A stretch of DNA of 64,000 nt, taken from IMG/VR virus record IMGVR_UViG_3300037807_000296, positions 1-64,000 of that record; one strand, given 5' to 3'. How positions within the stretch are numbered: position 1 is the stretch's first letter; every line of letters begins with the position of its first letter. The position numbers and the translations under genes are program-made. Origin of the DNA: a virus. Under the pieces are notes generated by a model. The model saw only the letters and a list, made by a program, of their open reading frames with translations. It did no database searches and had not been told where the DNA came from. Positions 1-49,649 of the stretch are shown piece by piece.

Positions 1-162
1 TCAACTGTTGATGATCCATAATAAGTATCCTCTTCAGGATCTATATTATTTTAATGTTTTTCGAGTAGCTGAGCCGATATAATACTTTTCAGTTCCTATA
101 GGATCGAGATCAGTAATGAGGTAGACGTAAAAGTTGAGGCCACTATAAATAGATGTATACAT
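1..162 (-). pseudogene. Frameshifted GIY-YIG homing endonuclease, 5' part (runs off left edge)
   Basis: Reading leftward from the ATG at 160-162, the protein matches the N-terminus of the three intact GIY-YIG endonucleases in this window (MYTSIYSG, then YVYLITDL and YYIGS). It stops at a TAA at 46-48 after 38 codons. The family sequence resumes in another frame (NNIDPEEDTYYGSSTV) up to the window edge, so one extra base or two missing bases near 48-54 break the frame. The RBS AAAGGAG precedes the ATG. It is probably an inactive relative of the endonucleases at 6999, 11516 and 21821. A sequencing error cannot be excluded. Confidence 0.8.
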
Positions 163-196
163 TATTAACTCCTTTGAAGTTAGTTGTGTTAGAAAG

Positions 197-6615: not shown

Positions 6616-7002
6616 ATGAGTACAAGTGAAGATATTTTTAAACAATTTGATGGCGAAAGTTTTGAATTTGGGATTGACTTCGTCGATAGCGTCAGCAAAG
6701 AACAAGAAGTTGATGACATTAAACAAGTAGTATCAGACAGCAATAGTAACCTAGAACATAAATTAGATGGACTAACATCTCACTTAGATCAATTAGCAGC
6801 TAAGATAGACTTTAGCGAATCTAAAGAATTAGTAGAAGCTAATGCGCAGCGCAAGGTGGTTGACATTGTGCAATTGATAGTACCTTTGCTTCGTAACCTA
6901 CAAAAATCTCCAGAATCAGATACCATTTATTGGCCTGGTTCTAAGAGGGTGCCGATGATCGATTCTCAGTTAAATAAGATGAAAGTGATATTAGATAGTT
7001 AA
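6616..7002 (+). CDS. Conserved T4-like phage protein of unknown function
   Basis: This 128-residue protein starts at ATG 6616 behind AAAGGAATAATT. It has an acidic N-terminal half, a helical middle (about residues 45-80) and a C-terminal motif TIYWPGSKRVPMID. I associate that motif with small conserved proteins of marine T4-like phages near gene 43. Its stop overlaps the convergent endonuclease stop at 6999. Function unknown. Confidence 0.75.
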   Translation: MSTSEDIFKQFDGESFEFGIDFVDSVSKEQEVDDIKQVVSDSNSNLEHKLDGLTSHLDQLAAKIDFSESKELVEANAQRKVVDIVQLIVPLLRNLQKSPESDTIYWPGSKRVPMIDSQLNKMKVILDS

Positions 7003-8297
7003 CTGTCTAGATAGAACCCTAGATCTTTCCACGTCAAACCAACAATATCATCCTCTGTTCCTAAATATTGAAGGTAGTTGTTACGAAGATAAGATAATTT
7101 GGTTATCACTTGGTTGAAATTTGTCCGTGCTAATCTTATGATCACAGATGGTGATAAGTGTGGTAATTGATCAGCCATTAATACTCCAGTTCTGAAACAC
7201 CCTAACTCAATATGACATATGTTACTATATCTAAATCCTTTAGTTTTGGTTGATTTTTTATGAGCTCTCTCAAATGAATTTAAACCAGTATCATCCACAT
7301 CGTTTAATTTTGTGCTAAGCATTTTAATACCAGCTCTCTTAAACGAATTTAAACCATTTTCATCTATATCATCTAATCTAGTGTTGAGGGTTTTGATACC
7401 AACTCTCTGAAACGTATTCAAACCATTTACATCTACATCATTTAATTTAGTCTCATTTCCTTTTCTTGTGTTTCGGATACAAGCATTCAAACCATTTTCG
7501 TCTATATCATTCAATTTAGTATTAAGCATTTTAACACCAACTCTCTGAAACGTATTCAAACCATTTTCGTCTATATCATTTAGTTTCGTATTAGATGCTT
7601 TAATACCAACCCTCTGAAATGTATTCAAACCATCTTCGTCTATGTTGTTTAGTTTAGACTCAATCATCCGTTTAGTTGATGGTATTTTAACATTATCAAT
7701 CCAATCAGGATCGTTGTAATGTGATTTAATTTTATCTACAGCTGCTACCCACACTGTAGATTTCCAATCAGGGTTATTGTGATACTTGCTGTTACTCTTA
7801 CCTATCTGGATGCATGCTGGTTTCCACACATCATTAACCCAATTTACATCTTCATGGTGTTTGGATATCTTCAAGCTAGTTCTGTTAAATTCATTTAACC
7901 CATTATCATCAATATTATTTCTTTTAGTTTCGAGTCCCTTATTAATACTTTCTACTGAATTCATAAACGAGTTAGCATACGATAGATTATAGAATAAAGG
8001 ATTTGAAGCTGCCTCATATTCTCTTTGTAACTTCTCCTCGTAATCTAAACAATCTTTCTTAAACGAAAATGTTTTAACGATAATGCGTTCTAATTGAGGG
8101 GATTGATTTTTTTGAAGGATCTTGAAATGCTCAACGGTAGAAGATCCAAAGTAAGTATCCTCTTCAGGATTAATATTTTTCTCAATGAGTTCTTTACGTG
8201 TTGAGGAACCAATATAATACTTCTCTGTTCCTATAGGATTGAGATCAGTAATAAGATAAACGTAAAAGTTGGGGCCGCTATAAATAGATGTATACAT
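6999..8297 (-). CDS. GIY-YIG homing endonuclease with DIDENGLN repeats
   Basis: Free-standing endonuclease of 432 residues, antisense between the preceding gene and gene 43. The N-terminal catalytic domain (about residues 1-95) has the GIY and YIG elements as YVYLI and KYYIGSS, an Arg just after, and a Glu in the CLDYEEKLQREY helix. About nine repeats of roughly 24 residues follow (core LNDIDENGLNTFQR), then a C-terminal segment ending WKDLGFYLDS. The RBS is TGGAG before ATG. Such enzymes cut intronless or inteinless alleles and spread by repair. The repeats probably form a DNA-binding linker. Confidence 0.9.
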   Translation of the reverse strand: MYTSIYSGPNFYVYLITDLNPIGTEKYYIGSSTRKELIEKNINPEEDTYFGSSTVEHFKILQKNQSPQLERIIVKTFSFKKDCLDYEEKLQREYEAASNPLFYNLSYANSFMNSVESINKGLETKRNNIDDNGLNEFNRTSLKISKHHEDVNWVNDVWKPACIQIGKSNSKYHNNPDWKSTVWVAAVDKIKSHYNDPDWIDNVKIPSTKRMIESKLNNIDEDGLNTFQRVGIKASNTKLNDIDENGLNTFQRVGVKMLNTKLNDIDENGLNACIRNTRKGNETKLNDVDVNGLNTFQRVGIKTLNTRLDDIDENGLNSFKRAGIKMLSTKLNDVDDTGLNSFERAHKKSTKTKGFRYSNICHIELGCFRTGVLMADQLPHLSPSVIIRLARTNFNQVITKLSYLRNNYLQYLGTEDDIVGLTWKDLGFYLDS

Positions 8298-8328
8298 GAT
8301 AATACTCCAGTATTGTTGTGTTAGAAAG

Positions 8329-8358
8329 GGATTGATGCTAAGAACATTAATCCTTTTT
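8329..8358 (+). terminator. Cassette terminator hairpin, copy 2
   Basis: GGATTGATG pairs with CATTAATCC (one G-U), followed by TTTTT. The stem differs from copy 1 but pairing is kept. It isolates gene 43 transcription from upstream read-through. Confidence 0.8.
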
Positions 8359-8371
8359 GTGTATCTATGAT

Positions 8372-8379
8372 TATTTATC
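8372..8379 (-). promoter_or_regulatory. Late promoter for endonuclease at 6999-8297
   Basis: Minus-strand GATAAATA lies 75 bases upstream of the endonuclease ATG, at the same place as in the sister cassettes. Confidence 0.55.
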
Positions 8380-8396
8380 GTTTAAAGAATCTCTCG

Positions 8397-8425
8397 TTCA
8401 CAATTATCGTTTTGTGTGGTATAAT
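8397..8425 (+). promoter_or_regulatory. Promoter for gene 43, leaderless arrangement
   Basis: TTCACA (8397-8402) and TATAAT (8420-8425) are 17 bases apart. The ATG at 8432 is where transcription is expected to begin, and there is no Shine-Dalgarno sequence. Confidence 0.65.
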
Positions 8426-11211: not shown

Positions 11212-11240
11212 TTGACTTTTATCATTTTATATAGTATAAT
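11212..11240 (+). promoter_or_regulatory. Early promoter for uvsX N-part
   Basis: TTGACT (11212-11217) and TATAAT (11235-11240) with 17-base spacing, followed by AAGGAGATTATA before the ATG. Confidence 0.8.
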
Positions 11241-11270: not shown

Positions 11271-11510
11271 ATGAGTTTGTTAGATAAGTTAAAAAAAGCT
11301 AGTACGATTGAAGATGTTGAGGTTTTGAGTAATTCTGAATTTTTCACTGATAAAGATAATACAGTTACTGAATTACCTATTCTTAATATTGCGTGTTCAG
11401 GACAATTGGATAAAGGTTTCACTTCTGGATTGACTTTAGTCTGTGGGCCTTCAAAACATTTTAAATGTTGTGGACCTGATACACCTATTGTTGTTTACGT
11501 TGCTGATTAG
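11271..11510 (+). CDS. uvsX: UvsX recombinase N-part fused to a 14-residue split-intein N fragment
   Basis: Residues 1-65 match the UvsX N-terminus through the start of the Walker A loop (GPSKHFK). T4 UvsX continues with Ser; here residue 66 is Cys, followed by CGPDTPIVVYVAD and a TAG. This is an intein block A: Cys1 and a GPDTP turn. The rest of the intein and of UvsX lies at 12538-13752, beyond an antisense endonuclease gene. The N-intein of 14 residues is far shorter than the roughly 90-100 residues of usual split inteins. Full UvsX requires trans-splicing, because this part alone lacks the ATPase core. Confidence 0.9.
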   Translation: MSLLDKLKKASTIEDVEVLSNSEFFTDKDNTVTELPILNIACSGQLDKGFTSGLTLVCGPSKHFKCCGPDTPIVVYVAD

Positions 11511-11515
11511 ATTAA

Positions 11516-12400
11516 TTAATTAGCTATTTCATAATAATAAAATCCTAAACTTTTCCAAGTCTTATTTATAGGATTATTGGGGAGGTTTTGAAGGAATAAA
11601 CTTCGATTGATGCTGCCTTTACTGATTACAGCATTAAAATCTTGTTTACACAATCTTCGGATAGTTCTCGCTAGTACACTGTAAGTGTGTATCTCTTTAA
11701 TAGCGTTTACTAGAGCTTGAGCTGAGTGGAATTCTCCAACTCCCTTGAACCCGTAAAATTTGTAACCGTGTCTTGTCTCTACATGTTTTCGTATCTTATC
11801 CTTCCCGATAGTCGCTTTCCATTCAGGATCAGTAATAGTTTCAATGTGTTTAGCGGTACTATCCTTTCCTGTAGTTGCTTTCCACTCAGGATCGTTTCTG
11901 GTGTTTATCATTTTAGCTGATTGTTTTTTTCCTGTAGTTGCTTTCCATTCAGGATCAGTAATAGTTTCTAATCTTTTAGCTGATTGTTTTTTTCCTGTAG
12001 TTGCTTTCCATTCAGGATCAGTAATAGTTTCAATGTGTTTAGCGTTTGAATTAAATGATGGGGCAAATCCTTTATTAGCATATCCTTTGTTGTAGAATAA
12101 AGGATTAATAGCTGCTTTGTGTTCTCGTTGTAAATTCTCCTCATAATCTAAACATTCTTTGATGTTATCAAATGTTTCAATTATTACACGTTCTAATTGA
12201 GATGATTGGGTTTTTTGAAGGATCTTAAAATGCTCAACAGAGGATGATCCGTAATAAGTATCCTCTTCAGGATTAATGTTATTTTCTTGTAATTCTTTAC
12301 GATAAGAGGAACCAATATAATACTTCTCTGTTCCTATAGGATTGAGGTCAGTGATTAAGTAAACATAAAAGTTAGGGCCGCTATAAATAGATGTATACAT
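11516..12400 (-). CDS. GIY-YIG homing endonuclease inside the fractured uvsX gene
   Basis: Antisense gene of 294 residues filling the gap between the two uvsX ORFs. The N-terminal GIY-YIG domain is nearly identical to that of 6999-8297. The middle has four repeats of about 20 residues built on TITDPEWKATTGK. The C-terminal part has a predicted helical DNA-binding region and ends TWKSLGFYYYEIAN. Its stop lies 6 bases from the stop of the intein N fragment. It occupies the position a nested endonuclease domain would have in an intact intein, so it probably mobilises this intein allele. RBS AAGGA. Confidence 0.9.
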   Translation of the reverse strand: MYTSIYSGPNFYVYLITDLNPIGTEKYYIGSSYRKELQENNINPEEDTYYGSSSVEHFKILQKTQSSQLERVIIETFDNIKECLDYEENLQREHKAAINPLFYNKGYANKGFAPSFNSNAKHIETITDPEWKATTGKKQSAKRLETITDPEWKATTGKKQSAKMINTRNDPEWKATTGKDSTAKHIETITDPEWKATIGKDKIRKHVETRHGYKFYGFKGVGEFHSAQALVNAIKEIHTYSVLARTIRRLCKQDFNAVISKGSINRSLFLQNLPNNPINKTWKSLGFYYYEIAN

Positions 12401-12431
12401 TGCAATACGTCCTTATTGTTGTGTTAGAAAG

Positions 12432-12462
12432 GGATTAATGTTCGAATCATTAATCCTTTTTA
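12432..12462 (+). terminator. Cassette terminator hairpin, copy 3
   Basis: GGATTAATG pairs perfectly with CATTAATCC around a 7-base loop, then a T run. It separates the transcripts of the two uvsX parts. Confidence 0.8.
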
Positions 12463-12468
12463 TTTATC
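12461..12468 (-). promoter_or_regulatory. Late promoter for endonuclease at 11516-12400
   Basis: Minus-strand GATAAATA, 61 bases upstream of the endonuclease ATG, overlapping the end of the terminator T run. Confidence 0.55.
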
Positions 12469-12474
12469 TTTATG

Positions 12475-12503
12475 TTGACATTTATCGTTTAATGTTGTAT
12501 AAT
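12475..12503 (+). promoter_or_regulatory. Early promoter for uvsX C-part
   Basis: TTGACA (12475-12480) and TATAAT (12498-12503), 17-base spacing. It gives the second half of uvsX its own transcript. Confidence 0.8.
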
Positions 12504-12537
12504 TATATTAATGTTAATGATATTATGGAGAAAGTGA

Positions 12538-13752
12538 ATGAAGCGGTTAAAATTAACGTATAAAGAGTTGTATGAGTTGATTGAAAAAGATCAGATGATA
12601 GAATATCATGTTAAGGATCATAACGGAGAATTTACAAAGGTTATAGGTATCAATAAGAAACAATCTGATACATATGATATCGATATCTCAGATGGTGCTA
12701 TTAAGATGACTGTTGGTGATCGGCATGCTTTTATGAATTCAATCGGTAATGCTGTTGTTACAGAAGATTTAGTCCCAGGTGATCAATTAAAATCATTACA
12801 TGGAAATTTACTAGTCACATCTGTTGACAATTTCAAGAAAGATCAAGAAGTGTATGATATAGCTATATCAGATCCACATTGGTATACTAATGATGATAGT
12901 CATGGATTAATTCATCATAATAGTTTAGTTTCTTTACAATTCGTTTCTGCTTATATGGGTAAGCATAAAGATGCTGTATGTTTATTTTACGATTCAGAAT
13001 TCGGTATGCCTGAGAATTACTTCACATCTAATGATGTAGATGTTGATAGAGTTATACATCTTCCAGTCAAGAATATTGAGGAGTTGAAGTTTGATATCAT
13101 GCAACAGTTAGAAGCTATCAGCAAAGATGATAAGGTTATAATCTTTATTGATAGTATCGGTAATCTATCCAGTAAGAAGGAAATGGATGATGCTATTGAT
13201 GGAAAATCAGTTGCTGATATGTCAAGAGCTAAGATGTTGAAATCGTTATTCCGTATGGTTACTCCTTATCTAACAATGAAGGATATTCCTATGATTGCTG
13301 TTAATCATGTATATAATGAGATTGGTTTATATCCTAAAGCTATCGTTGGAGGAGGGCAGGGTGTGTACCTCTCAGCTGACACAATCTTCATCATGGGAAG
13401 ACGTCAGAATAAGAAGGGTACTGAGGTTAAGGGTTATGATTTTATCATGAACATTGAGAAAAGTCGATATGTTAGGGAGAAGTCTAAGTTACCTATAACA
13501 GTATCATGGGAAGGTGGTATTGATAAGTATTCAGGATTGCTTGAGATTGCTAGACAGTTGGAGTATGTTACCTCACCTAAGAATGGATGGTATACTAGAC
13601 CCATGATTGAGGGTGATAAGAACTGGAGAGCGGGAGATTCATCGTGTGCTGAGTTTTGGGATCCATTATTGTTGAGTGATGAATTTAAAACAGCTATTAC
13701 ACGTTCTTATGAAGTGGGTAGCTCTCCTATGGAAGGTGATATGGATGAGTGA
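12538..13752 (+). CDS. uvsX: Split-intein C fragment fused to UvsX recombinase C-part
   Basis: Residues 1-128 are the rest of the intein. Block B is MTVGDRHAF (Thr..His), block F is around VYDIAISDPHWYTND, and block G is HHN with Ser+1 at residue 129. From there SLVSLQFVSAYM rejoins UvsX exactly where T4 has SNFGLTMVSSYM. The recombinase core follows: DAVCLFYDSEFG, VIIFIDSIGNL (Walker B), AVNHVYN, GGGQG and NGWYTRP. The spliced protein would be 65 + 276 = 341 residues (T4 391). UvsX forms the filament for strand exchange and recombination-dependent replication. The start ATG follows GGAGAAAGTGA. Confidence 0.93.
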   Translation: MKRLKLTYKELYELIEKDQMIEYHVKDHNGEFTKVIGINKKQSDTYDIDISDGAIKMTVGDRHAFMNSIGNAVVTEDLVPGDQLKSLHGNLLVTSVDNFKKDQEVYDIAISDPHWYTNDDSHGLIHHNSLVSLQFVSAYMGKHKDAVCLFYDSEFGMPENYFTSNDVDVDRVIHLPVKNIEELKFDIMQQLEAISKDDKVIIFIDSIGNLSSKKEMDDAIDGKSVADMSRAKMLKSLFRMVTPYLTMKDIPMIAVNHVYNEIGLYPKAIVGGGQGVYLSADTIFIMGRRQNKKGTEVKGYDFIMNIEKSRYVREKSKLPITVSWEGGIDKYSGLLEIARQLEYVTSPKNGWYTRPMIEGDKNWRAGDSSCAEFWDPLLLSDEFKTAITRSYEVGSSPMEGDMDE

Positions 13753-14574: not shown

Positions 14575-15933
14575 ATGATCACAACTGAAAATGTTATAAT
14601 ATCTGAGTTATTGACTAACGTTGATTATCTTCAAAGAGTGATCGCACATATTAGACCAGAATATTTTCATGATGCAGCAGAGAGAGTGGTTCTAGAAGAG
14701 ATTATAAAATATACAATTAAATATGGCAATGCTCCTAGTAAAGATGCTCTTGCTATTAATATTGATTCTCGAGATGATCTTAATGAGCAGCAATATATTA
14801 ATGTGATTGATGTATTGGAAAATTTATCTGAAGAATCTCATGATAATGATTGGCTTATAGATGCAACAGATCAGTTTATCAAAGATAAGAGTGTATATAA
14901 TGCTGTAATGGAAAGTATCTCTATTATTGATGATAATGAAAAGCCTAATACATCCCTCCCTGATATACTGAGTGATGCGTTATCTGTATCTTTAGATGAT
15001 CATGTTGGTCATGATTATTTGGATGATATTGAAGAACGATATGATTTTTATCATAACGTAGAGGAACGTATACCGTGTGATCTAAGCCGATTGAATGTGG
15101 CAATGAAAGGGGGAGCACCTAAAAAAACGTTAAACTGTGCTATGGCGGGTACAAACGTGGGGAAAACAGTATTTTTATGTTCATTAGCGGCATCTTATTT
15201 AAAACAACATAAAAATGTGTTGTATATTACGATGGAGATGGCTGAGGAACGTATTGCTGAACGTATTGATGCTAATATTCTAAAAACCCCAATGGATGAG
15301 TTGGAACATCTTGATAGAGATATGTACACCACAAAATTTAAGAATGCTATGAGTAATGTGAAAGGTAATCTTATTGTAAAGGAATACCCTACAGGTGCAG
15401 CATCTGCAGCAACGTTTAGAGGGTTGTTAAAGGAATTGAAAATAAAGAAGGATTTTACTCCGGATATTCTTTTAATTGATTATCTAGCGATCTGCTCTTC
15501 TACTAGATATAGTGGAGTGTCGGAGAATAGTTATCATTTCGTTAAAGCAGTCGCAGAAGAGTTGCGGGGATTAGCGATTGAATGTAATGTTCCAATATGG
15601 ACAGCAGCTCAAACGAATCGTGGTGCATTTAACGATTCTGATCCTGATATGACAAGTATTGCTGAATGTATATACGTAGAAGAGCAGGTTGAGTTAGTTA
15701 ATGGTGATTTCATTGCTATTAAAGATGTTGAAATTGGTGATAAGATTTTAGATAATGAGATGTATAAGACTGTGGTGACTACTCATCACGTGAAACCTAA
15801 AGATTGTGTTAAGATCACATTAAAATCGGGGAAAACTATCATTGTATCTAAGCAACACGTTTTCCCTACTAAGAGTGGTCGTAAATCGATAGATTTAGGG
15901 TTGTGTGTTGGGGATAGATTGAATACTAAATGA
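14575..15933 (+). CDS. 41: Replicative helicase gp41 N-part fused to split-intein N fragment
   Basis: Residues 1-364 match T4 gp41, the hexameric DnaB-like helicase. Walker A is AGTNVGKT, followed by VLYITMEMAEERIAERIDAN, ILLIDYLAICSS, and WTAAQTNRGAF up to SIAE. T4 continues SAGLPATADF. Here residue 365 is Cys, starting an 88-residue N-intein (IKDVEIGDKI, LKSGKTIIVSKQHVFPTK) that resembles the known phage gp41-8 split intein. The ORF then stops. The C-half starts 53 bases downstream. No endonuclease lies in the gap. Confidence 0.93.
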   Translation: MITTENVIISELLTNVDYLQRVIAHIRPEYFHDAAERVVLEEIIKYTIKYGNAPSKDALAINIDSRDDLNEQQYINVIDVLENLSEESHDNDWLIDATDQFIKDKSVYNAVMESISIIDDNEKPNTSLPDILSDALSVSLDDHVGHDYLDDIEERYDFYHNVEERIPCDLSRLNVAMKGGAPKKTLNCAMAGTNVGKTVFLCSLAASYLKQHKNVLYITMEMAEERIAERIDANILKTPMDELEHLDRDMYTTKFKNAMSNVKGNLIVKEYPTGAASAATFRGLLKELKIKKDFTPDILLIDYLAICSSTRYSGVSENSYHFVKAVAEELRGLAIECNVPIWTAAQTNRGAFNDSDPDMTSIAECIYVEEQVELVNGDFIAIKDVEIGDKILDNEMYKTVVTTHHVKPKDCVKITLKSGKTIIVSKQHVFPTKSGRKSIDLGLCVGDRLNTK

Positions 15934-15986: not shown

Positions 15987-16538
15987 ATGACACAAAAAGA
16001 GTTTGAGCAGGATTGTTATGAAAAAGCGCAAAAATATATACAAGGTGGATTGGTACACGCTGGTACTGATTTATTAAACCTCACTGAAGTGTTTATATCT
16101 ATGGGTCAAGAGCATTTGGATAGAATGTTATTATCTGACTCTAAAATAGATTATAATGATGAGATAGTTGCTATTGAAGAGGTGGGAGTTAAGGATACTG
16201 TGGATATTTCAGTTACTGGAGATCATCTTTTCTATTGTAATGGCATATTAACGAAAAATTCATTTGGACTTGCTGCCACTCTCGATTTCCTCATTTCATT
16301 AACGACTAATGATGAGTTATCTGAGATGGGTCAAATTAAATTCAAAACTATTAAAAATAGGTATACTGAGGATAAAAAATCATTTATGGTGAATGTTGAT
16401 TTCCCTCGAATGACATTCTCTGATGTTGATGATATATCTACTAACTATTCAGTATCACCCCAAACTCAAGATTTGATGTCTAATAAACCTACATTTAACT
16501 CTAGAGTTAGTAAATTTGATAGTATCGTTGTTAATTGA
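15987..16538 (+). CDS. 41: Split-intein C fragment fused to gp41 helicase C-part
   Basis: The C-intein ends ...HLFYCNGILTKN at residue 91, with Ser+1 at 92. SFGLAATLDF then rejoins gp41 exactly at the T4 counterpart SAGLPATADF. The remaining 92 residues include the arginine-finger region (FKTIKNRYTEDKK). The recognisable C-intein core is only about the last 40 residues (from IDYNDEIVAIEEVGV). About 50 residues in front of it have no counterpart in known C-inteins. The spliced helicase would be 456 residues (T4 475). RBS CGGAGATTGGA before ATG. Confidence 0.92.
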   Translation: MTQKEFEQDCYEKAQKYIQGGLVHAGTDLLNLTEVFISMGQEHLDRMLLSDSKIDYNDEIVAIEEVGVKDTVDISVTGDHLFYCNGILTKNSFGLAATLDFLISLTTNDELSEMGQIKFKTIKNRYTEDKKSFMVNVDFPRMTFSDVDDISTNYSVSPQTQDLMSNKPTFNSRVSKFDSIVVN

Positions 16539-20626: not shown

Positions 20627-21826
20627 ATGTATACGTTTAAAGAATATATAGATCTGAATGAAGGGGGTAATATAACAATCCCTGATATACATGGAGTTGA
20701 GCATGATGCAGCTCGTATCCCATTAGAGGATATTGGCCGTAAAACATTTGTTGAATCTTTCCAAAAATTTTTCTTAAAGCTTAATACTATATTCGAGAAA
20801 GAGTATAATTATCCTCTATGGCCGGATACTGGGGAAATCACTAATGCTGGTATCTTTAACGGCTCCACTAGTTTCATTATGAGTGCTGATTACTCTGATG
20901 AAGAAGTGCTTAAATATAAAAAAACTGCTGGTGATATTGATGTTGCATTCCCTCGAGAATATGGTCCTGATCTATATAACTTACTTCTTAAACTTAGAGG
21001 AAAGGAGTTGGTTCCGGGATTAGAGTATATAGGGAATAACGCTAAAACTCAAGATAAATTAGGCAATACTATAATATGTATAGTGAAAGCTCGTTATGGT
21101 GATATAGAAGTATCTGCTCAAGTAGATATGGAATTATCAGAATTCGTACAAGGTAAACAAACCGATTGGAGTGCTCATATACACTCGAGTAGCTTTGAAG
21201 ACGCTAAGGCAGGAATTAAAGGAGCAGCATCAAAATTCTTATGGAGAGCGTTGATTGGGATCACTTCACAAGTAACAGATAACTTCTTAGAAGCGACACC
21301 ATCTAGTACACCTGATAAGATAACAATCAAAAAGAAACAGCCTGCTTACTTGAGTCTTATAGTGTATGGAGGAGAAGCAGGTGTTGGTACGAATCCTGCA
21401 TATGAGTTAATGGTTGATTCAAAGAATAAACCTATCTTAGTAAATGGGAAGAGGGTGTTCCGTAAGCTGAAGCCTAAAGAGAGGACTTATGATAGAAATC
21501 TAGGAAACCTCATTAAGATAGCATTTGGGGGCAAGATTGATTCTAAGAAGATACCTAAGAAGGAGTTAGATAGTTTTGTTAAGACATTAGCGATAGCTAA
21601 TAAGTATCTTGATAAAAAGAGTAAGGAAGATGTGAATTATAGGTTCATGTTAATATTGTTTGGAGAAGATGGAAGGACACAAACTATTGAGCCTAAAAAT
21701 CCAAGAGAGGATTTAGAGATTAAGATGGCTATGTATAATAAACTAATTGAACTCTTGAAAATTAAAGCACATCCGCAATTAGAGGCTAAGGTTAATATGT
21801 ACATGAAGGTTATGCATAAGTCATAA
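20627..21826 (+). CDS. Putative nucleotidyltransferase with capsid-targeting-like leader
   Basis: 399 residues. The leader is MYTFKEYIDLNE (possible cleavage after L-N-E). A pol-beta-like nucleotidyltransferase signature is visible: FNGSTSFIM (about residues 80-88) and TAGDIDVAFP (about 103-112), the GS...DxD pattern. QVDMEL (about 167) could give the third acidic residue. Substrate unknown. Its stop overlaps the stop of the convergent endonuclease gene. Confidence 0.65.
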   Translation: MYTFKEYIDLNEGGNITIPDIHGVEHDAARIPLEDIGRKTFVESFQKFFLKLNTIFEKEYNYPLWPDTGEITNAGIFNGSTSFIMSADYSDEEVLKYKKTAGDIDVAFPREYGPDLYNLLLKLRGKELVPGLEYIGNNAKTQDKLGNTIICIVKARYGDIEVSAQVDMELSEFVQGKQTDWSAHIHSSSFEDAKAGIKGAASKFLWRALIGITSQVTDNFLEATPSSTPDKITIKKKQPAYLSLIVYGGEAGVGTNPAYELMVDSKNKPILVNGKRVFRKLKPKERTYDRNLGNLIKIAFGGKIDSKKIPKKELDSFVKTLAIANKYLDKKSKEDVNYRFMLILFGEDGRTQTIEPKNPREDLEIKMAMYNKLIELLKIKAHPQLEAKVNMYMKVMHKS

Positions 21827-23131
21827 TTTAACATCTTCGTAATAATAAAACCCTAAATCGTGATATGATTTACCAGTAGGATCATCTTCTAGGGACTGGA
21901 GAAATGGACTATTCCCTCTTCTCGTGATGATTGTTTTGAAATTACTTTTAGCTAATTCATGAATACGAGATGAGCTCAAACTACATCCGTAATGTTTTTT
22001 AATAGCAGCAGCGAGTGCTTTAGGAGTGTGAACAACCTCCACTCCTTTAAATCCGTAACACTTGTGACCACATAACGTTTTACTTCTCTTCTGTGCAGCG
22101 TCTTTTCCGGTAGTATTTTTCCATTTTACATTATTTACAGTTTTGATGTGTTTAATAGCACCTCGTTCATGAGAATTCAATCCACTATCGTCTATATCAT
22201 TTAATTTAGTGTATTTAGTTTTAATAGCACCTCGTTCATGAGAATTCAATCCACTATCGTCTATATCATTTAATTTAGTGTATTTAGTTTTAATAACACC
22301 TCGTTCATAAGAATTCAATCCATTATCATCTATATTATTTAATTTAGTTTCACTTATTTTAAATACACTTCTTTGGTATGAATTTAATCCATCATCATCT
22401 ATATTATTTAATCGAGATGCACAAGTTTTAGCACCAGCTCTTTGATAAGAGTTCAATCCATCGTTGATATCATTTAATCTAGTTTCTTTTACTTTAAATG
22501 CACTTCTTTGATTTGTATTCAATCCGTCATCATCGATGTCATTTAATTTAGTTTCTTTTACTTTAAATGCACTTCTTTGATAAGAGTTTAATCCATCATC
22601 ATCGATATCATTTAATCTAGTTTCTTTTGCTTTAACTCCAACTCTTTGATAAGAGTTCAATCCGTTACTATCTATATCTTTTAATCTCGTTGTGTTAGAT
22701 TTAAGGATAGCTCTTTCAAATACATTTAATCCATTCTCATCCACATTAGTGAGTTTTGTTTTTACTGTTTTCAGTTGCGATTCAGCAGTTGTTGAGAATC
22801 CACGATTAGCATAACATTTGTTGTAGAATAAAGGATTGGAAGCGGCATCATGATCTCTTTGTATCTTCTCCTCATAATCTAAACATCTTTTCTTAGAAGA
22901 AAATGTTTTAATAATAATGCGTTCTAATTGAGGTGATTTGGATTTTTGAAGAGCTCTAAAATGTTTAACAGAAGAAGACCCAAAATAAGTATCTAGTTCT
23001 GGATTTATGTTATTCTCTTGTAGCTCTTTACGATGTGATGACCCAATATAATACATCTCTGTTCCTATAGGATTGAGATCAGTAATAAGATAAACGTAAA
23101 AGTTGAGGCCGTTATAAATAGATGTATGCAT
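21821..23131 (-). CDS. GIY-YIG homing endonuclease with ten-fold DIDDDGLNSYQR repeats
   Basis: 436 residues, antisense between two late-type genes. The N-terminal GIY-YIG domain is nearly the same as in the other cassettes (YVYLITDLNPIG, MYYIGSS). About ten 23-24 residue repeats (core LNDIDDDGLNSYQR) occupy residues 115-340. A C-terminal domain with KCYGFKGVEVVHTPKALAAAIKK and a helix-turn-helix-like tail ends DLGFYYYEDVKL. Some repeats are nearly identical in DNA (22175-22310), which suggests recent expansion. RBS GGGAG before ATG. Confidence 0.9.
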   Translation of the reverse strand: MHTSIYNGLNFYVYLITDLNPIGTEMYYIGSSHRKELQENNINPELDTYFGSSSVKHFRALQKSKSPQLERIIIKTFSSKKRCLDYEEKIQRDHDAASNPLFYNKCYANRGFSTTAESQLKTVKTKLTNVDENGLNVFERAILKSNTTRLKDIDSNGLNSYQRVGVKAKETRLNDIDDDGLNSYQRSAFKVKETKLNDIDDDGLNTNQRSAFKVKETRLNDINDGLNSYQRAGAKTCASRLNNIDDDGLNSYQRSVFKISETKLNNIDDNGLNSYERGVIKTKYTKLNDIDDSGLNSHERGAIKTKYTKLNDIDDSGLNSHERGAIKHIKTVNNVKWKNTTGKDAAQKRSKTLCGHKCYGFKGVEVVHTPKALAAAIKKHYGCSLSSSRIHELAKSNFKTIITRRGNSPFLQSLEDDPTGKSYHDLGFYYYEDVKL

Positions 23132-23162
23132 GATAATACTCCCGTATTGTTATGTTAGAAAG

Positions 23163-23192
23163 GGAATGGTGATTGGTTCATCATTCCTTTTC
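23163..23192 (+). terminator. Cassette terminator hairpin, copy 4
   Basis: GGAATGGTG pairs with CATCATTCC (one G-U), followed by TTTT. The arms differ from the other copies at several paired positions while keeping the fold. Confidence 0.75.
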
Positions 23193-47498: not shown

Positions 47499-47573
47499 GC
47501 CTTGGTCGTATAATGGTTAGTACAGAAGATTGTCGATCTTCATATAGGGTTTCGATTACCCTCCAAGGCGCCA
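47499..47573 (+). tRNA. tRNA-Asp (GTC)
   Basis: Acceptor GCCTTGG/CCAAGGC, anticodon stem GAAGA/TCTTC with loop TTGTCGA, T-arm AGGGT TTCGATT ACCCT, encoded CCA. Canonical fold. Confidence 0.9.
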
Positions 47574-47851
47574 AATAACCGATTGATGTGAAATGAAGAT
47601 ATTTCACTAAGTCTAGCGCTGCGGTATCGTTAATACATTAGCAAGTATAATTTGGAACCTTAGTTGAGATGTATATTATCATATTCAGTAATAGCAGTGA
47701 TTAAATCACTATATGATATTGTTGATTTTGTTTTCTTGGTATTGTTCTCTGTTTGTAACATTAATTCACAATTTAACATGTGTTTAATAGTAAAACATCT
47801 CTCTTACAAAGAGGAGCCAAAGGAGCGTTACCTTTATTGGATACCAAAAAT
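47574..47851. other. Spacer within tRNA cluster
   Basis: About 280 bases without a complete tRNA or credible gene. A perfect hairpin GTGAAAT/ATTTCAC occurs near 47585-47605. A 65-residue open frame at 47664 lacks a ribosome site and is not called. Confidence 0.4.
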
Positions 47852-47925
47852 GTCGTGTTAGCTCCAATTGGCAGAGCAGGAGTTTCCAACACTCATGGTT
47901 CGGGGTTCGAATCCCTGGCACGGCG
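47852..47925 (+). tRNA. tRNA-Trp (CCA)
   Basis: Acceptor GTCGTGT/GCACGGC (two G-U), D-stem GCTC/GAGC, anticodon loop TTCCAAC, T-arm CGGGG TTCGAAT CCCTG. The 3' CCA is not encoded (CCC). It abuts the next tRNA-like element. Confidence 0.85.
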
Positions 47926-47927
47926 CC

Positions 47928-47999
47928 CGTAATCGATCAAGAGATCATTCATCTTTCATAAAGAAGAATAGCTTGGGGCAGTACCAAGGATTACGACCA
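47928..47999 (+). tRNA. Aberrant tRNA-Met-like element (CAT)
   Basis: Acceptor CGTAATC/GATTACG, seven perfect pairs, with ACCA encoded. Anticodon arm CATCT/AGAAG (one mismatch) with loop TTCATAA. The T-arm CTTGG/CCAAG has loop GGCAGTA instead of TTCGAAT. The D-arm is a GATC/GATC hairpin with a 4-base loop. The acceptor, CCA and anticodon loop look genuine, while the elbow-forming loops are missing. Confidence 0.6.
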
Positions 48000-48016
48000 T
48001 ATAATGTTATAAAATA

Positions 48017-48092
48017 GGGGAATGGGCTTGGGTACCCAGGATTCTTTTGCAAGGAGTCAGCTTGATCAGTTCAATTCTGATATTCTCTACCA
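48017..48092 (+). tRNA. tRNA-Ala (TGC)
   Basis: Acceptor GGGGAAT/ATTCTCT (two G-U), anticodon stem ATTCT/GGAGT with loop TTTGCAA, T-arm ATCAG TTCAATT CTGAT, encoded CCA. The D-region CTTGG/CCAGG forms a tight hairpin rather than a normal D-loop. Confidence 0.8.
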
Positions 48093-48099
48093 GTTATAT

Positions 48100-48172
48100 G
48101 CCTGTGAGCTAATGGATAGACGCCAGCCTTCCAAGCTGTGCTGAGAGGTTTCGATCACCTCCACAGGCTCCA
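48100..48172 (+). tRNA. tRNA-Gly (TCC)
   Basis: Acceptor GCCTGTG/CACAGGC, anticodon loop CTTCCAA, T-arm GAGGT TTCGATC ACCTC, encoded CCA. Confidence 0.85.
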
Positions 48173-48197
48173 TTTAATGATTGATGTAATATATTTA

Positions 48198-48281
48198 GTC
48201 TTTTGTTCCTGACATCAGTCTTCTAAACTGATCCAAGAGTTAGGTGGATGGCGTGAGGTTCGATTCCTCCAGAGGACACCA
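48198..48281 (+). tRNA. tRNA-Arg (TCT), atypical
   Basis: Acceptor GTCTTTT/AGAGGAC, perfect anticodon stem TCAGT/ACTGA with loop CTTCTAA, T-arm TGAGG TTCGATT CCTCC, encoded CCA. Only about 10 bases lie between acceptor and anticodon stem, too few for a D-arm. About 22 bases lie between anticodon stem and T-arm. Degenerate or rearranged. Confidence 0.6.
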
Positions 48282-48287
48282 ACAAAC

Positions 48288-48373
48288 GGAAGATAAACTA
48301 GTCAGGGACTAGACTTGTTTGCTAAACAATGTGAACCGCAAGGTTTGAATTTCGAATATTCTGTCTTCCACCA
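48288..48373 (+). tRNA. tRNA-Ser (GCT)
   Basis: Acceptor GGAAGAT/GTCTTCC, anticodon loop TTGCTAA, long variable arm GAACC/GGTTT, T-arm GAAT TTCGAAT ATTC, encoded CCA. The D-arm is a 6-pair hairpin CTAGTC/GACTAG with only a 3-base loop. Confidence 0.82.
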
Positions 48374-48378
48374 ATAAA

Positions 48379-48453
48379 GGGCCTTTAGCTTAAAGGTAAA
48401 GCACTCCACTCATAATGGATTGAGTCTAGGTTCGATTCCTGGAAGGCCCACCA
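48379..48453 (+). tRNA. tRNA-Met or tRNA-Ile2 (CAT)
   Basis: Acceptor GGGCCTT/AAGGCCC, anticodon loop CTCATAA, T-arm CTAGG TTCGATT CCTGG, encoded CCA. If C34 is lysidine-modified it would read ATA (Ile); the sequence alone does not decide. Confidence 0.85.
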
Positions 48454-48464
48454 TGTTACATAAT

Positions 48465-48536
48465 GCCCTTGTAGTCTAATGGAAAGGCTACAGTCTTCGA
48501 AACTGTTATATAGAGGTTCGAATCCTCTCAAGGGTA
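48465..48536 (+). tRNA. tRNA-Arg (TCG)
   Basis: Acceptor GCCCTTG/CAAGGGT, anticodon stem ACAGT/ACTGT with loop CTTCGAA, T-arm AGAGG TTCGAAT CCTCT. The 3' CCA is not encoded. Confidence 0.85.
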
Positions 48537-48543
48537 CTAAATT

Positions 48544-48636
48544 GGAAGTCCCATCCGATGGTTGGCGACGGATGCTGTCTTGAAAACAGTTAGCTCTGAA
48601 ACGGGCGTTAGGGTTCGATCCCCTAGGCTTCCGCCA
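48544..48636 (+). tRNA. tRNA-Ser (TGA)
   Basis: Acceptor GGAAGTC/GGCTTCC, anticodon loop CTTGAAA, long variable arm, T-arm TAGGG TTCGATC CCCTA, encoded CCA. Class II tRNA of 93 bases. Confidence 0.87.
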
Positions 48637-48666
48637 TTTTATATACAGTTGAATAGTTATTCGCTA

Positions 48667-48695
48667 TTGACTTTCATTATTTTATATGGTATACT
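48667..48695 (+). promoter_or_regulatory. Early promoter
   Basis: TTGACT (48667-48672) and TATACT (48690-48695), 17-base spacing, directly after the tRNA-Ser. Confidence 0.75.
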
Positions 48696-48773
48696 AAAGT
48701 TAAATACTATTTCATGAAATGTTATAGTGTAATATTAATAACTGTGGTAATTAATTTCAGGAGAAATGTAGAT

Positions 48774-49031
48774 ATGACAGAAGCAGAATACGATTTATTT
48801 GAACAGTTAACGGTAGTTGATGATCAACAAGCTAAACGAATTACTGAATTAGAAGCTAGATTGGAAGAATTAGAGAATAATAACAATATACCTCTGTATT
48901 ATCCGACTCCACCAACTTTTAAATCTGAATCCCCAGTGTGCAATCTATGTGGAATGGATTTTAACGGCACTACTGGATATGTATGTACTAATATGAATTG
49001 TCCAATGGGTCGTGGGCCAATAATATCCTAA
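48774..49031 (+). CDS. Coiled-coil zinc-finger small protein
   Basis: 85 residues from ATG 48774 (GGAG upstream). The N-terminal helix RITELEARLEELEN is a short coiled coil. The C-terminal CNLCGMDF...CTNMNCP forms a four-Cys zinc site. Function unknown. Confidence 0.6.
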   Translation: MTEAEYDLFEQLTVVDDQQAKRITELEARLEELENNNNIPLYYPTPPTFKSESPVCNLCGMDFNGTTGYVCTNMNCPMGRGPIIS

Positions 49032-49046
49032 CAATAGAGAAATAAA

Positions 49047-49487
49047 ATGAAAATACAAAATGTTTCATATGCTGATATTGTTACAGGAGTTCACGTGAAT
49101 CCAGGAACAAACTCAATGCTTATACAGATTGTTGATCCTGGTATGGAATTTCCGTTGCCTAATCATCAGTTCAAAAGTATGCATCAGTTTGAATTTACAG
49201 ATGTTGAATGTTCTGATGATGTTGGTTGGGAGTCTAGAATAACAAAAGCACAAACACGAGACATCGCAAATTTAATTAGAAAAGCGAAGCACGGTGATAT
49301 GAATATAGTAGTTCATTGTGTTGCAGGCGTATGCCGTTCTGGTGCTGTGGTTGAAGTAGCAACGATGGCAGGTTTTGATGATATTCCTGGAATATTCAGA
49401 CTTCCAAATATATATGTTAAAAGGATGTTGATGGAAGAATTTGGATATTATGTAACAAAATCTGACTTTGATAATATATTTAAATAA
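49047..49487 (+). CDS. Dual-specificity phosphatase-like protein
   Basis: 146 residues. VVHCVAGVCRSGAV (about residues 89-102) is the HCX5R(S) active-site loop of cysteine phosphatases. Upstream ITKAQTRDIANLI and a downstream LPNIYVKRML helix fit a small DSP fold. It may dephosphorylate host proteins, RNA or nucleotides. Ends five bases before tRNA-Gln. Confidence 0.72.
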   Translation: MKIQNVSYADIVTGVHVNPGTNSMLIQIVDPGMEFPLPNHQFKSMHQFEFTDVECSDDVGWESRITKAQTRDIANLIRKAKHGDMNIVVHCVAGVCRSGAVVEVATMAGFDDIPGIFRLPNIYVKRMLMEEFGYYVTKSDFDNIFK

Positions 49488-49491
49488 CATT

Positions 49492-49565
49492 TCTCCTGTC
49501 GTCTAATGGTCGGACAATAGACTTTGAATCTGTTTATGAAGGTTCGAATCCTTCCAGGAGATCCA
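49492..49565 (+). tRNA. tRNA-Gln (TTG)
   Basis: Acceptor TCTCCTG/CAGGAGA, anticodon stem ATAGA/TCTGT with loop CTTTGAA, T-arm GAAGG TTCGAAT CCTTC, encoded CCA. Confidence 0.9.
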
Positions 49566-49571
49566 ATTAAT

Positions 49572-49649
49572 GCACATGTACCAAAGTGGTTTAATGGAAC
49601 AGATTGCAAATCTGTATAGTCGTTGGTTCGAATCCAATCATGTGCTCCA
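49572..49649 (+). tRNA. tRNA-Cys (GCA)
   Basis: Acceptor GCACATG/CATGTGC, anticodon stem ACAGA/TCTGT with loop TTGCAAA, T-arm TTGG TTCGAAT CCAA, encoded CCA. Confidence 0.88.

What the first reader, a model, noticed from the sequence alone, without database searches (positions are those of the whole stretch)
11271..13752. Fractured uvsX: 14-residue N-intein, antisense endonuclease in the gap, independent promoters for each half
UvsX is split inside Walker A (GPSKHFK | S). The N-ORF ends after CCGPDTPIVVYVAD, and the C-ORF begins with the remaining 128 intein residues ending HHN|S. N-inteins this short are known only from a few atypically split phage inteins (AceL-TerL type). A uvsX example from metagenomes may have been reported, as I recall. 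Here the gap is filled by an intact antisense GIY-YIG gene with its own terminator and promoters, so the two halves are separate transcription units. Recombination competence therefore depends on trans-splicing.
Basis: partly seen in the sequence, partly recalled or inferred. Interest (0 to 1): 0.88.

Follow-up and report, generated by a model that had tools for sequence, protein, structure and literature searches.

The report
Phage recombinase split by endonuclease insertion
In this T4-like virus of bacteria the gene for a DNA-recombination protein has been cut in two by an inserted DNA-cutting gene, and the two protein pieces almost certainly weld themselves back together through a self-splicing intein whose first piece is only 14 amino acids long; it is a fine new example of a known kind of broken gene.

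Summary
uvsX of a T4-like phage is broken inside Walker A (GPSKHFK|S): the N-half (11271-11510) carries a 14-residue N-intein, the C-half (12538-13752) a 128-residue C-intein, and the 1,027-bp gap an intact antisense GIY-YIG endonuclease gene (12400-11516). The joined exteins match T4 UvsX (E 7e-106). A related contig (L066) has an uninterrupted 141-residue mini-intein at the same site, collinear with 14+128, so the split is best explained by insertion of the endonuclease cassette into a cis mini-intein. Four paralogous cassettes in the contig, all antisense, share a terminator hairpin; behind it stands a promoter of the phage's own early family, giving the C-half its own transcript. A cultured Vibrio phage has uvsX and gp41 only as fractured pieces, so such breaks are viable. 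Other contigs show a 13-residue N-intein split with only a remnant of the gap gene. This is a 'fractured gene' (Dassa 2009) with an S1-type atypical split (like VidaL, PolB16), one residue shorter than the shortest characterised N-intein. Trans-splicing is inferred, not shown.

The parts
11212..11240 (+). Promoter of the N-half: TTGACT-17-TATAAT, best member of the phage's early promoter family
11271..11465 (+). UvsX N-extein, 65 aa, ends in Walker A ...CGPSKHFK; Shine-Dalgarno AAGGAG upstream
11466..11510 (+). N-intein, 14 aa CCGPDTPIVVYVAD (nucleophile Cys66 of the ORF) plus stop TAG
11516..12400 (-). Antisense GIY-YIG homing endonuclease gene, 294 aa, repeat-rich DNA-binding part
12427..12461 (+). 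Intrinsic terminator hairpin, conserved with compensatory changes in all four endonuclease cassettes; also lies in the 5' leader of the antisense gene
12475..12503 (+). Promoter of the C-half: TTGACA-17-TATAAT, 12 of 12; held-out member of the phage's early promoter family (rank 6 of 127,944 positions)
12538..12921 (+). C-intein, 128 aa, block-B His, block-F Asp/His, ends ...LIHHN
12922..13752 (+). UvsX C-extein, 276 aa, begins with Ser+1, which is also the Walker A Ser
6999..8425 (-). Paralogous cassette before the DNA polymerase gene: endonuclease 8297-6999 (-), hairpin about 8324-8358, + strand promoter 8397-8425
21821..23192 (-). Third paralogous cassette: antisense endonuclease 23131-21821, hairpin at about 23158-23192

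Best explanation
uvsX once carried a contiguous class-1 mini-intein of about 142 residues in its Walker A motif. A mobile antisense GIY-YIG endonuclease cassette inserted after intein codon 14, in the loop after the first long strand. It brought or acquired a stop codon for the N-half, a terminator that ends the N-half transcript, and an early-type promoter, ribosome site and ATG for the C-half. The two halves are made from separate messages with the same promoter class, bind each other through the 14-residue strand docking into the otherwise complete C-intein, and splice in trans (Cys1 acyl shift, transfer to Ser+1, Asn cyclisation) to give a 341-residue UvsX with an intact P-loop. Before splicing neither half has a complete ATPase site. 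Shown: anatomy, collinear cis relative, cassette copies, promoter and terminator sequences, viability of such breaks in a cultured phage. Inferred: insertion order, transcript boundaries, splicing, endonuclease activity and target.
For: Exact 14+128 fit to the 141-aa cis intein at the same site in L066, 49% identity, catalytic residues kept; intein and extein diverge at the same pace (pN 0.325 and 0.313), so the split intein is still constrained; profile of six such inteins finds CatC 6e-8, gp41-1 7e-8 and VidaL 2.5e-7 in the PDB; spliced product matches T4 UvsX 3io5 at 7e-106; intein-free uvsX homologues align without a break across the junction; terminator and promoter; four cassettes share nuclease domain and hairpin; endonuclease domain under purifying selection, dN/dS 0.17-0.27 between window paralogues; cultured Vibrio phage vB_VmeM-32 has uvsX and gp41 only as fractured pieces with C-inteins ending in HN (PMC6483233); no intron family in the gap.
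Against: No splicing data. The AlphaFold model of the intein is poor beyond residue 66 (mean pLDDT 50) and Foldseek gives only a weak best hit, the NrdJ-1 split intein (E 0.036). The block-B Thr is Gly here. The contig is a fragment, so a second uvsX elsewhere cannot be excluded. L066 and the window lie in different uvsX clades with intein-free relatives between, so L066 shows the pre-insertion state but is not the direct ancestor.
Confidence: 0.86

Rival explanations
1. The gene is a dead remnant: the insertion destroyed uvsX, and the phage lives on host RecA or on another recombinase.
For: Host RecA can stand in for UvsX in T4 homing (PMC2988022); the record is partial.
Against: Both halves are open, keep all intein catalytic residues and the Walker A Ser, and each has a strong early promoter and a Shine-Dalgarno site; intein and extein diverge at the same rate; identical in several assemblies.
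Confidence: 0.06
2. The two halves are not spliced but assemble non-covalently into a working recombinase, as for the split NrdA of Aeh1 or gp43 of phage 25.
For: Such gene-in-pieces enzymes exist in T4-like phages (PMC2988022).
Against: The break is between Lys and Ser of the P-loop, and both edges carry complete intein motifs collinear with a cis intein; a non-covalent P-loop with intein parts attached is implausible.
Confidence: 0.03
3. The gap is removed at the RNA level (group I or II intron) or bypassed in translation, leaving a contiguous cis intein.
For: Endonuclease genes often sit in phage introns (PMC2988022).
Against: No Rfam intron in 11271-13000 even at E 5; a strong terminator and a promoter lie in the gap; stop directly after intein codon 14 and stop directly before the ATG of the C-half.
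Confidence: 0.02
4. Chimeric assembly joining two uvsX alleles around an endonuclease repeat.
For: Four endonuclease copies about 80% alike could mislead an assembler.
Against: Identical 13.2-kb stretch in contigs of two other samples, third contig with the left junction; N- and C-halves together make one complete UvsX with no overlap or loss.
Confidence: 0.02

Closest known systems
'Fractured genes' (Dassa et al. 2009, NAR 37:2560; content recalled from memory, paper not held; cited in PMC10448857, PMC7090010, PMC11766414)
   Same: DNA-metabolism enzyme gene, mostly of phages, broken by a split intein with a free-standing endonuclease gene in the break; control elements near the endonuclease
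   Different: Here the endonuclease is antisense GIY-YIG with a shared terminator hairpin, and the split is at the far N-terminal S1 site; whether any published locus has this combination could not be checked
VidaL (16-aa IntN) and PolB16 OarG (15-aa IntN) atypically split inteins (PMC13014065, PMC10189870)
   Same: Split right after the second strand (S1), short IntN, long IntC; same family of folds by profile (VidaL 2.5e-7)
   Different: 14-aa IntN, one residue below the shortest characterised; not detectably close to VidaL by single-sequence search; PolB16 is Ser1/Ser+1, this one Cys1/Ser+1
Vibrio phage vB_VmeM-32 uvsX and gp41 (KU160494)
   Same: uvsX and gp41 of a cultured T4-like phage, each only as two pieces with split inteins; SegG-like endonuclease in the uvsX gap
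   Different: uvsX there is split at the canonical intein position and at another place in UvsX; the gap genes are in sense orientation; gp41 IntN is 27 aa
T4 segD and segA; seg43(25) of Aeromonas phage 25 (PMC2988022)
   Same: Free-standing GIY-YIG genes; segD is antisense, segA sits by uvsX and cuts it, seg43(25) has a strong hairpin before its RBS and lies in a split gene 43
   Different: Not inside an intein-coding sequence as far as that review says
Cis mini-intein of L066 uvsX (IMGVR_UViG_3300010885_023196)
   Same: Same site, 49% identical, collinear
   Different: Not split; no endonuclease

Membership tests
Class-1 split intein | Cys/Ser at position 1, block-B His, C-terminal His-Asn, Cys/Ser/Thr at +1 | tested here: met
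   C1...GDRHAF...LIHHN|S, all shared with L066; the usual block-B Thr is Gly in both
Class-1 split intein | HINT fold | tested here: inconclusive
   Profile hits three solved inteins at about 1e-7; AlphaFold model poor past residue 66, Foldseek best hit NrdJ-1 split intein E 0.036
Class-1 split intein | Two separately encoded fragments that splice in trans | not testable with these tools
   Separate ORFs shown; splicing needs an experiment
S1-type atypical split (VidaL, PolB16) | Break just after the first long strand, IntN about 15-16 aa | tested here: met
   14 aa; strands predicted at 7-12 and 16-21 of the cis relative, pLDDT 65-81 in this part; literature range 15-37 (PMC13014065)
Fractured gene (Dassa type) | Conserved enzyme gene broken by a split intein with a free-standing endonuclease gene in the break | tested here: met
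GIY-YIG homing endonuclease, Seg-like | GIY-YIG domain above curated Pfam cut-off | tested here: not met
   SegE_GIY-YIG 17 bits against cut-off 25; so filed only as GIY-YIG-like by motif and PHROG
GIY-YIG homing endonuclease, Seg-like | GIY-YIG core residues and relation to homing-endonuclease families | tested here: met
   YVYL...YYIGSS...R...E invariant in four homologues; phrog_314 homing endonuclease 2.6e-13
GIY-YIG homing endonuclease, Seg-like | Site-specific cleavage and gene conversion | not testable with these tools
   Target site unknown
Self-splicing intron | Group I or II core in the gap | tested here: not met
   No Rfam intron up to E 5
UvsX recombinase | RecA core with Walker A and UvsX C-terminal domain, restored on joining | tested here: met
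   RecA and T4_UVSX_C Pfam over cut-off; T4 UvsX 3io5 7e-106

The most novel reading that the evidence does not exclude
A mobile antisense endonuclease cassette that carries a terminator and an early promoter turns any mini-intein it enters into a viable two-transcript split gene, so S1-split inteins with 13-14-residue N-fragments arise by one insertion and persist after the endonuclease is lost. The split would then also place the recombinase needed for homing under the joint control of two promoters and of fragment assembly.
Probability: 0.3. Interest if true: 0.7.

Novelty: new member of a known kind. Interest (0 to 1): 0.52.

Why it matters
It supplies, from related phages, each stage of split-intein birth: intein-free uvsX, cis mini-intein at the same codon, split with the endonuclease present, and (in a second gene) split with only a remnant of the gap gene left. 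That makes the proposed origin of atypical split inteins directly testable. If the 14-residue (and the 13-residue) N-inteins splice, they would be the shortest natural ones, useful for attaching synthetic peptides to proteins. The cassette's shared terminator, followed by an early-family promoter, explains how an antisense insertion inside a replication gene can be tolerated.

Tried and rejected
No close relative of the window intein in genome contigs or in cultured phages (only gp41 of vB_VmeM-32, one uncultured phage and TerL inteins at 28-31% identity). The window endonuclease has no match among cultured phages. Single-sequence PDB searches with the intein gave nothing significant; only the six-member profile did. 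Both AlphaFold jobs were of low confidence. A late-promoter motif TATAAATA occurs at the same place in all four cassettes but is depleted in the window as a whole (7 against 15.7 expected) and lies in coding sequence, so I draw nothing from it. I looked for evidence that the promoter of the C-half is part of the mobile cassette: the ones at 257, 8397 and 12475 follow the hairpin, but promoters of the same family elsewhere are about as similar, so cassette origin is not proven. Charge of the fragments was looked at (N-intein -2 against +1 in L066) but rests on one pair. Dassa 2009 and the GOS-TerL paper were not held.

Full report
What is there. The window lies in an IMG/VR viral record of 65,294 bases that carries T4-type replication genes: gp55-type sigma, SbcD/SbcC-type nuclease, clamp, clamp loader, DNA polymerase, uvsX, gp41-type helicase. 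uvsX is in two pieces. ORF 11271-11510 encodes 65 residues of UvsX up to GPSKHFK and then CCGPDTPIVVYVAD and a stop. ORF 12538-13752 encodes 128 residues ending LIHHN, then SLVSLQF... of UvsX. The break falls between Lys and Ser of the Walker A motif, so Ser+1 is both the second splicing nucleophile and the P-loop Ser. Joining the exteins gives 341 residues that match T4 UvsX (3io5) across the junction, E 7e-106. Intein-free homologues from IMG/VR align to the joined sequence without a break, and many read CGPSKHFKS at this place.

The cis relative. A scan of IMG/VR with the C-intein found, apart from copies of this phage, one contig, L066. Its uvsX is one ORF of 497 aa with a contiguous 141-residue mini-intein between the same two codons: GESKHFK|CLGPNTPITIYKKE...IIHHN|T. 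It aligns to the window's 14+128 residues with 49% identity and a single one-residue gap far from the break. Nothing is lost or gained at the break: a TGA stop stands right before the ATG of the C-half. So the window allele is what one gets by putting about 1,027 bp after intein codon 14 of an L066-like gene. Intein and extein have diverged at the same pace between the two phages (pN 0.325 and 0.313, synonymous sites saturated). The UvsX tree puts the two phages in different clades with intein-free relatives between them, so L066 shows the pre-insertion state but is not the direct ancestor, and the intein's distribution is patchy.

Where the split is. In the model of the L066 intein the usable part (residues 1-66, pLDDT mostly 65-81) has strands at 7-12 and 16-21; the break after residue 14 is the loop between them. 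This is the S1 position, which the literature assigns to VidaL (16 aa) and PolB16 OarG (15 aa), whereas AceL and GOS TerL split later, after the first helix (PMC13014065, PMC10189870). Fourteen residues would be the shortest natural N-intein by one; the literature range is 15-37.

Is it an intein. Single-sequence searches are too weak, but a profile of six inteins of this sort (window, L066, vB_VmeM-32 gp41, Menlow TerL, two AAA-gene inteins) finds CatC, gp41-1 and VidaL at 6e-8 to 2.5e-7 and further inteins below. Cys1, block-B His, final His-Asn and Ser+1 are present; block-B Thr is Gly in both window and L066.

The gap. The antisense ORF 12400-11516 is intact. It has the GIY-YIG core (YVYL, YYIGSS, Arg, Glu) and a repeat-rich tail, hits a homing-endonuclease PHROG at 2.6e-13 but stays below the Pfam cut-off. 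Four paralogues lie in this contig, all antisense: one cut off by the contig start (about 1-163), 6999-8297, 11516-12400, 21821-23131. A relative in another phage, L071, sits between other genes, and more distant ones in L073 and L074 are again antisense to their neighbours. In T4 only segD is antisense (PMC2988022). Among the three complete window copies the nuclease domain has dN/dS 0.17-0.27. All four cassettes share a hairpin followed by a T-run on the + strand: 14 pairs, all cells paired, three pairs with changes on both sides, z-scores -5.6, -5.1 and -7.6 for the three that were folded. With four sequences the covariation is modest (19 of 500 shuffles reach it), but the slid controls do not come near.

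Expression of the halves. Before the N-half stands TTGACT-17-TATAAT and, 14 bases after the hairpin, before the C-half, TTGACA-17-TATAAT. A weight matrix built from the other members of this promoter family, without the C-half site, ranks that site 6th of 127,944 positions, behind only training sites. So both halves appear to use the phage's own early-type promoter, and the terminator separates their messages; calling the family 'early' is an inference from its sigma-70 form. As with T4 segD, its expression is an open question. Whether the C-half promoter came with the cassette or arose later is not settled.

Are such breaks viable. The cultured, plaque-purified Vibrio phage vB_VmeM-32 (PMC6483233; KU160494, 199,912 bp) has uvsX only as two pieces, with a canonically split intein and a SegG-like endonuclease gene in between, and gp41 only as two pieces, with a 27-aa N-intein in Walker A and an unassigned ORF in between. 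The text of that paper does not mention inteins. That a plaque-forming phage carries only fractured copies supports, without proving, that trans-splicing restores these enzymes.

After the break. L066 has a second gene, an AAA ATPase (phrog_1250), split in Walker A with a 13-aa N-intein (CLSADTAIVATQD) and a sense ORF of unassigned family in the gap. In four other contigs (L083-L086) the same gene has a 13-aa N-intein (CLSADTEINATME) and a gap of only 144 bp, which in L085 still holds a 68-nt remnant of the 3' end of that ORF (72% identity, E 1e-6). So a split can outlive the inserted gene.

Judgement. The finding is real and well read; it belongs to the known fractured-gene kind with a known, rare split type. 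Its value is the short N-intein, the series of stages, and the cassette with terminator and downstream promoter. Homing in T4 needs UvsX or host RecA (PMC2988022), so an endonuclease that sits inside uvsX has a stake in keeping UvsX working; that is a thought, not a result. Against the claim: no splicing data, an incomplete genome, and the 2009 paper that defines the kind could not be opened here, so I cannot say how many of its loci already show an antisense endonuclease.

Noticed in passing
14575-15933 and 15987-16538 (+): The gp41-type helicase next to uvsX is also in two ORFs with a gp41-1-like split intein (88-aa N-part, 91-aa C-part, PDB 6qaz 6e-17), gap 53 bp and no endonuclease; a second putatively trans-spliced replication protein in the same phage.
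   Followed up: partly
L066:9021-12266; L085:4972-7074; L083, L084, L086: An AAA ATPase gene (phrog_1250) split in Walker A with a 13-residue N-intein; L066 has an ORF in the gap, L083-L086 only a 144-bp gap, with a remnant of that ORF in L085.
   Followed up: yes
window 1-163, 6999-8297, 11516-12400, 21821-23131 (-): Four paralogous antisense GIY-YIG genes with divergent repeat tails and a shared hairpin.
   Followed up: yes
window 144, 8279, 12382, 23113 (+): TATAAATA, the T4 late-promoter motif, at the same place in all four cassettes, although the motif is rarer than chance in the window.
   Followed up: partly
KU160494.1 71058-75374: DNA polymerase gene of Vibrio phage vB_VmeM-32 is annotated in several pieces with other genes, one endonuclease-like, between them.
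   Followed up: no
MG428990.1 47437-49653 (L076:3006-5222): Klebsiella phage Menlow TerL carries a contiguous mini-intein in its Walker A motif, annotated only as terminase.
   Followed up: partly
window 47499-49649 (+): Cluster of seven tRNA genes.
   Followed up: no
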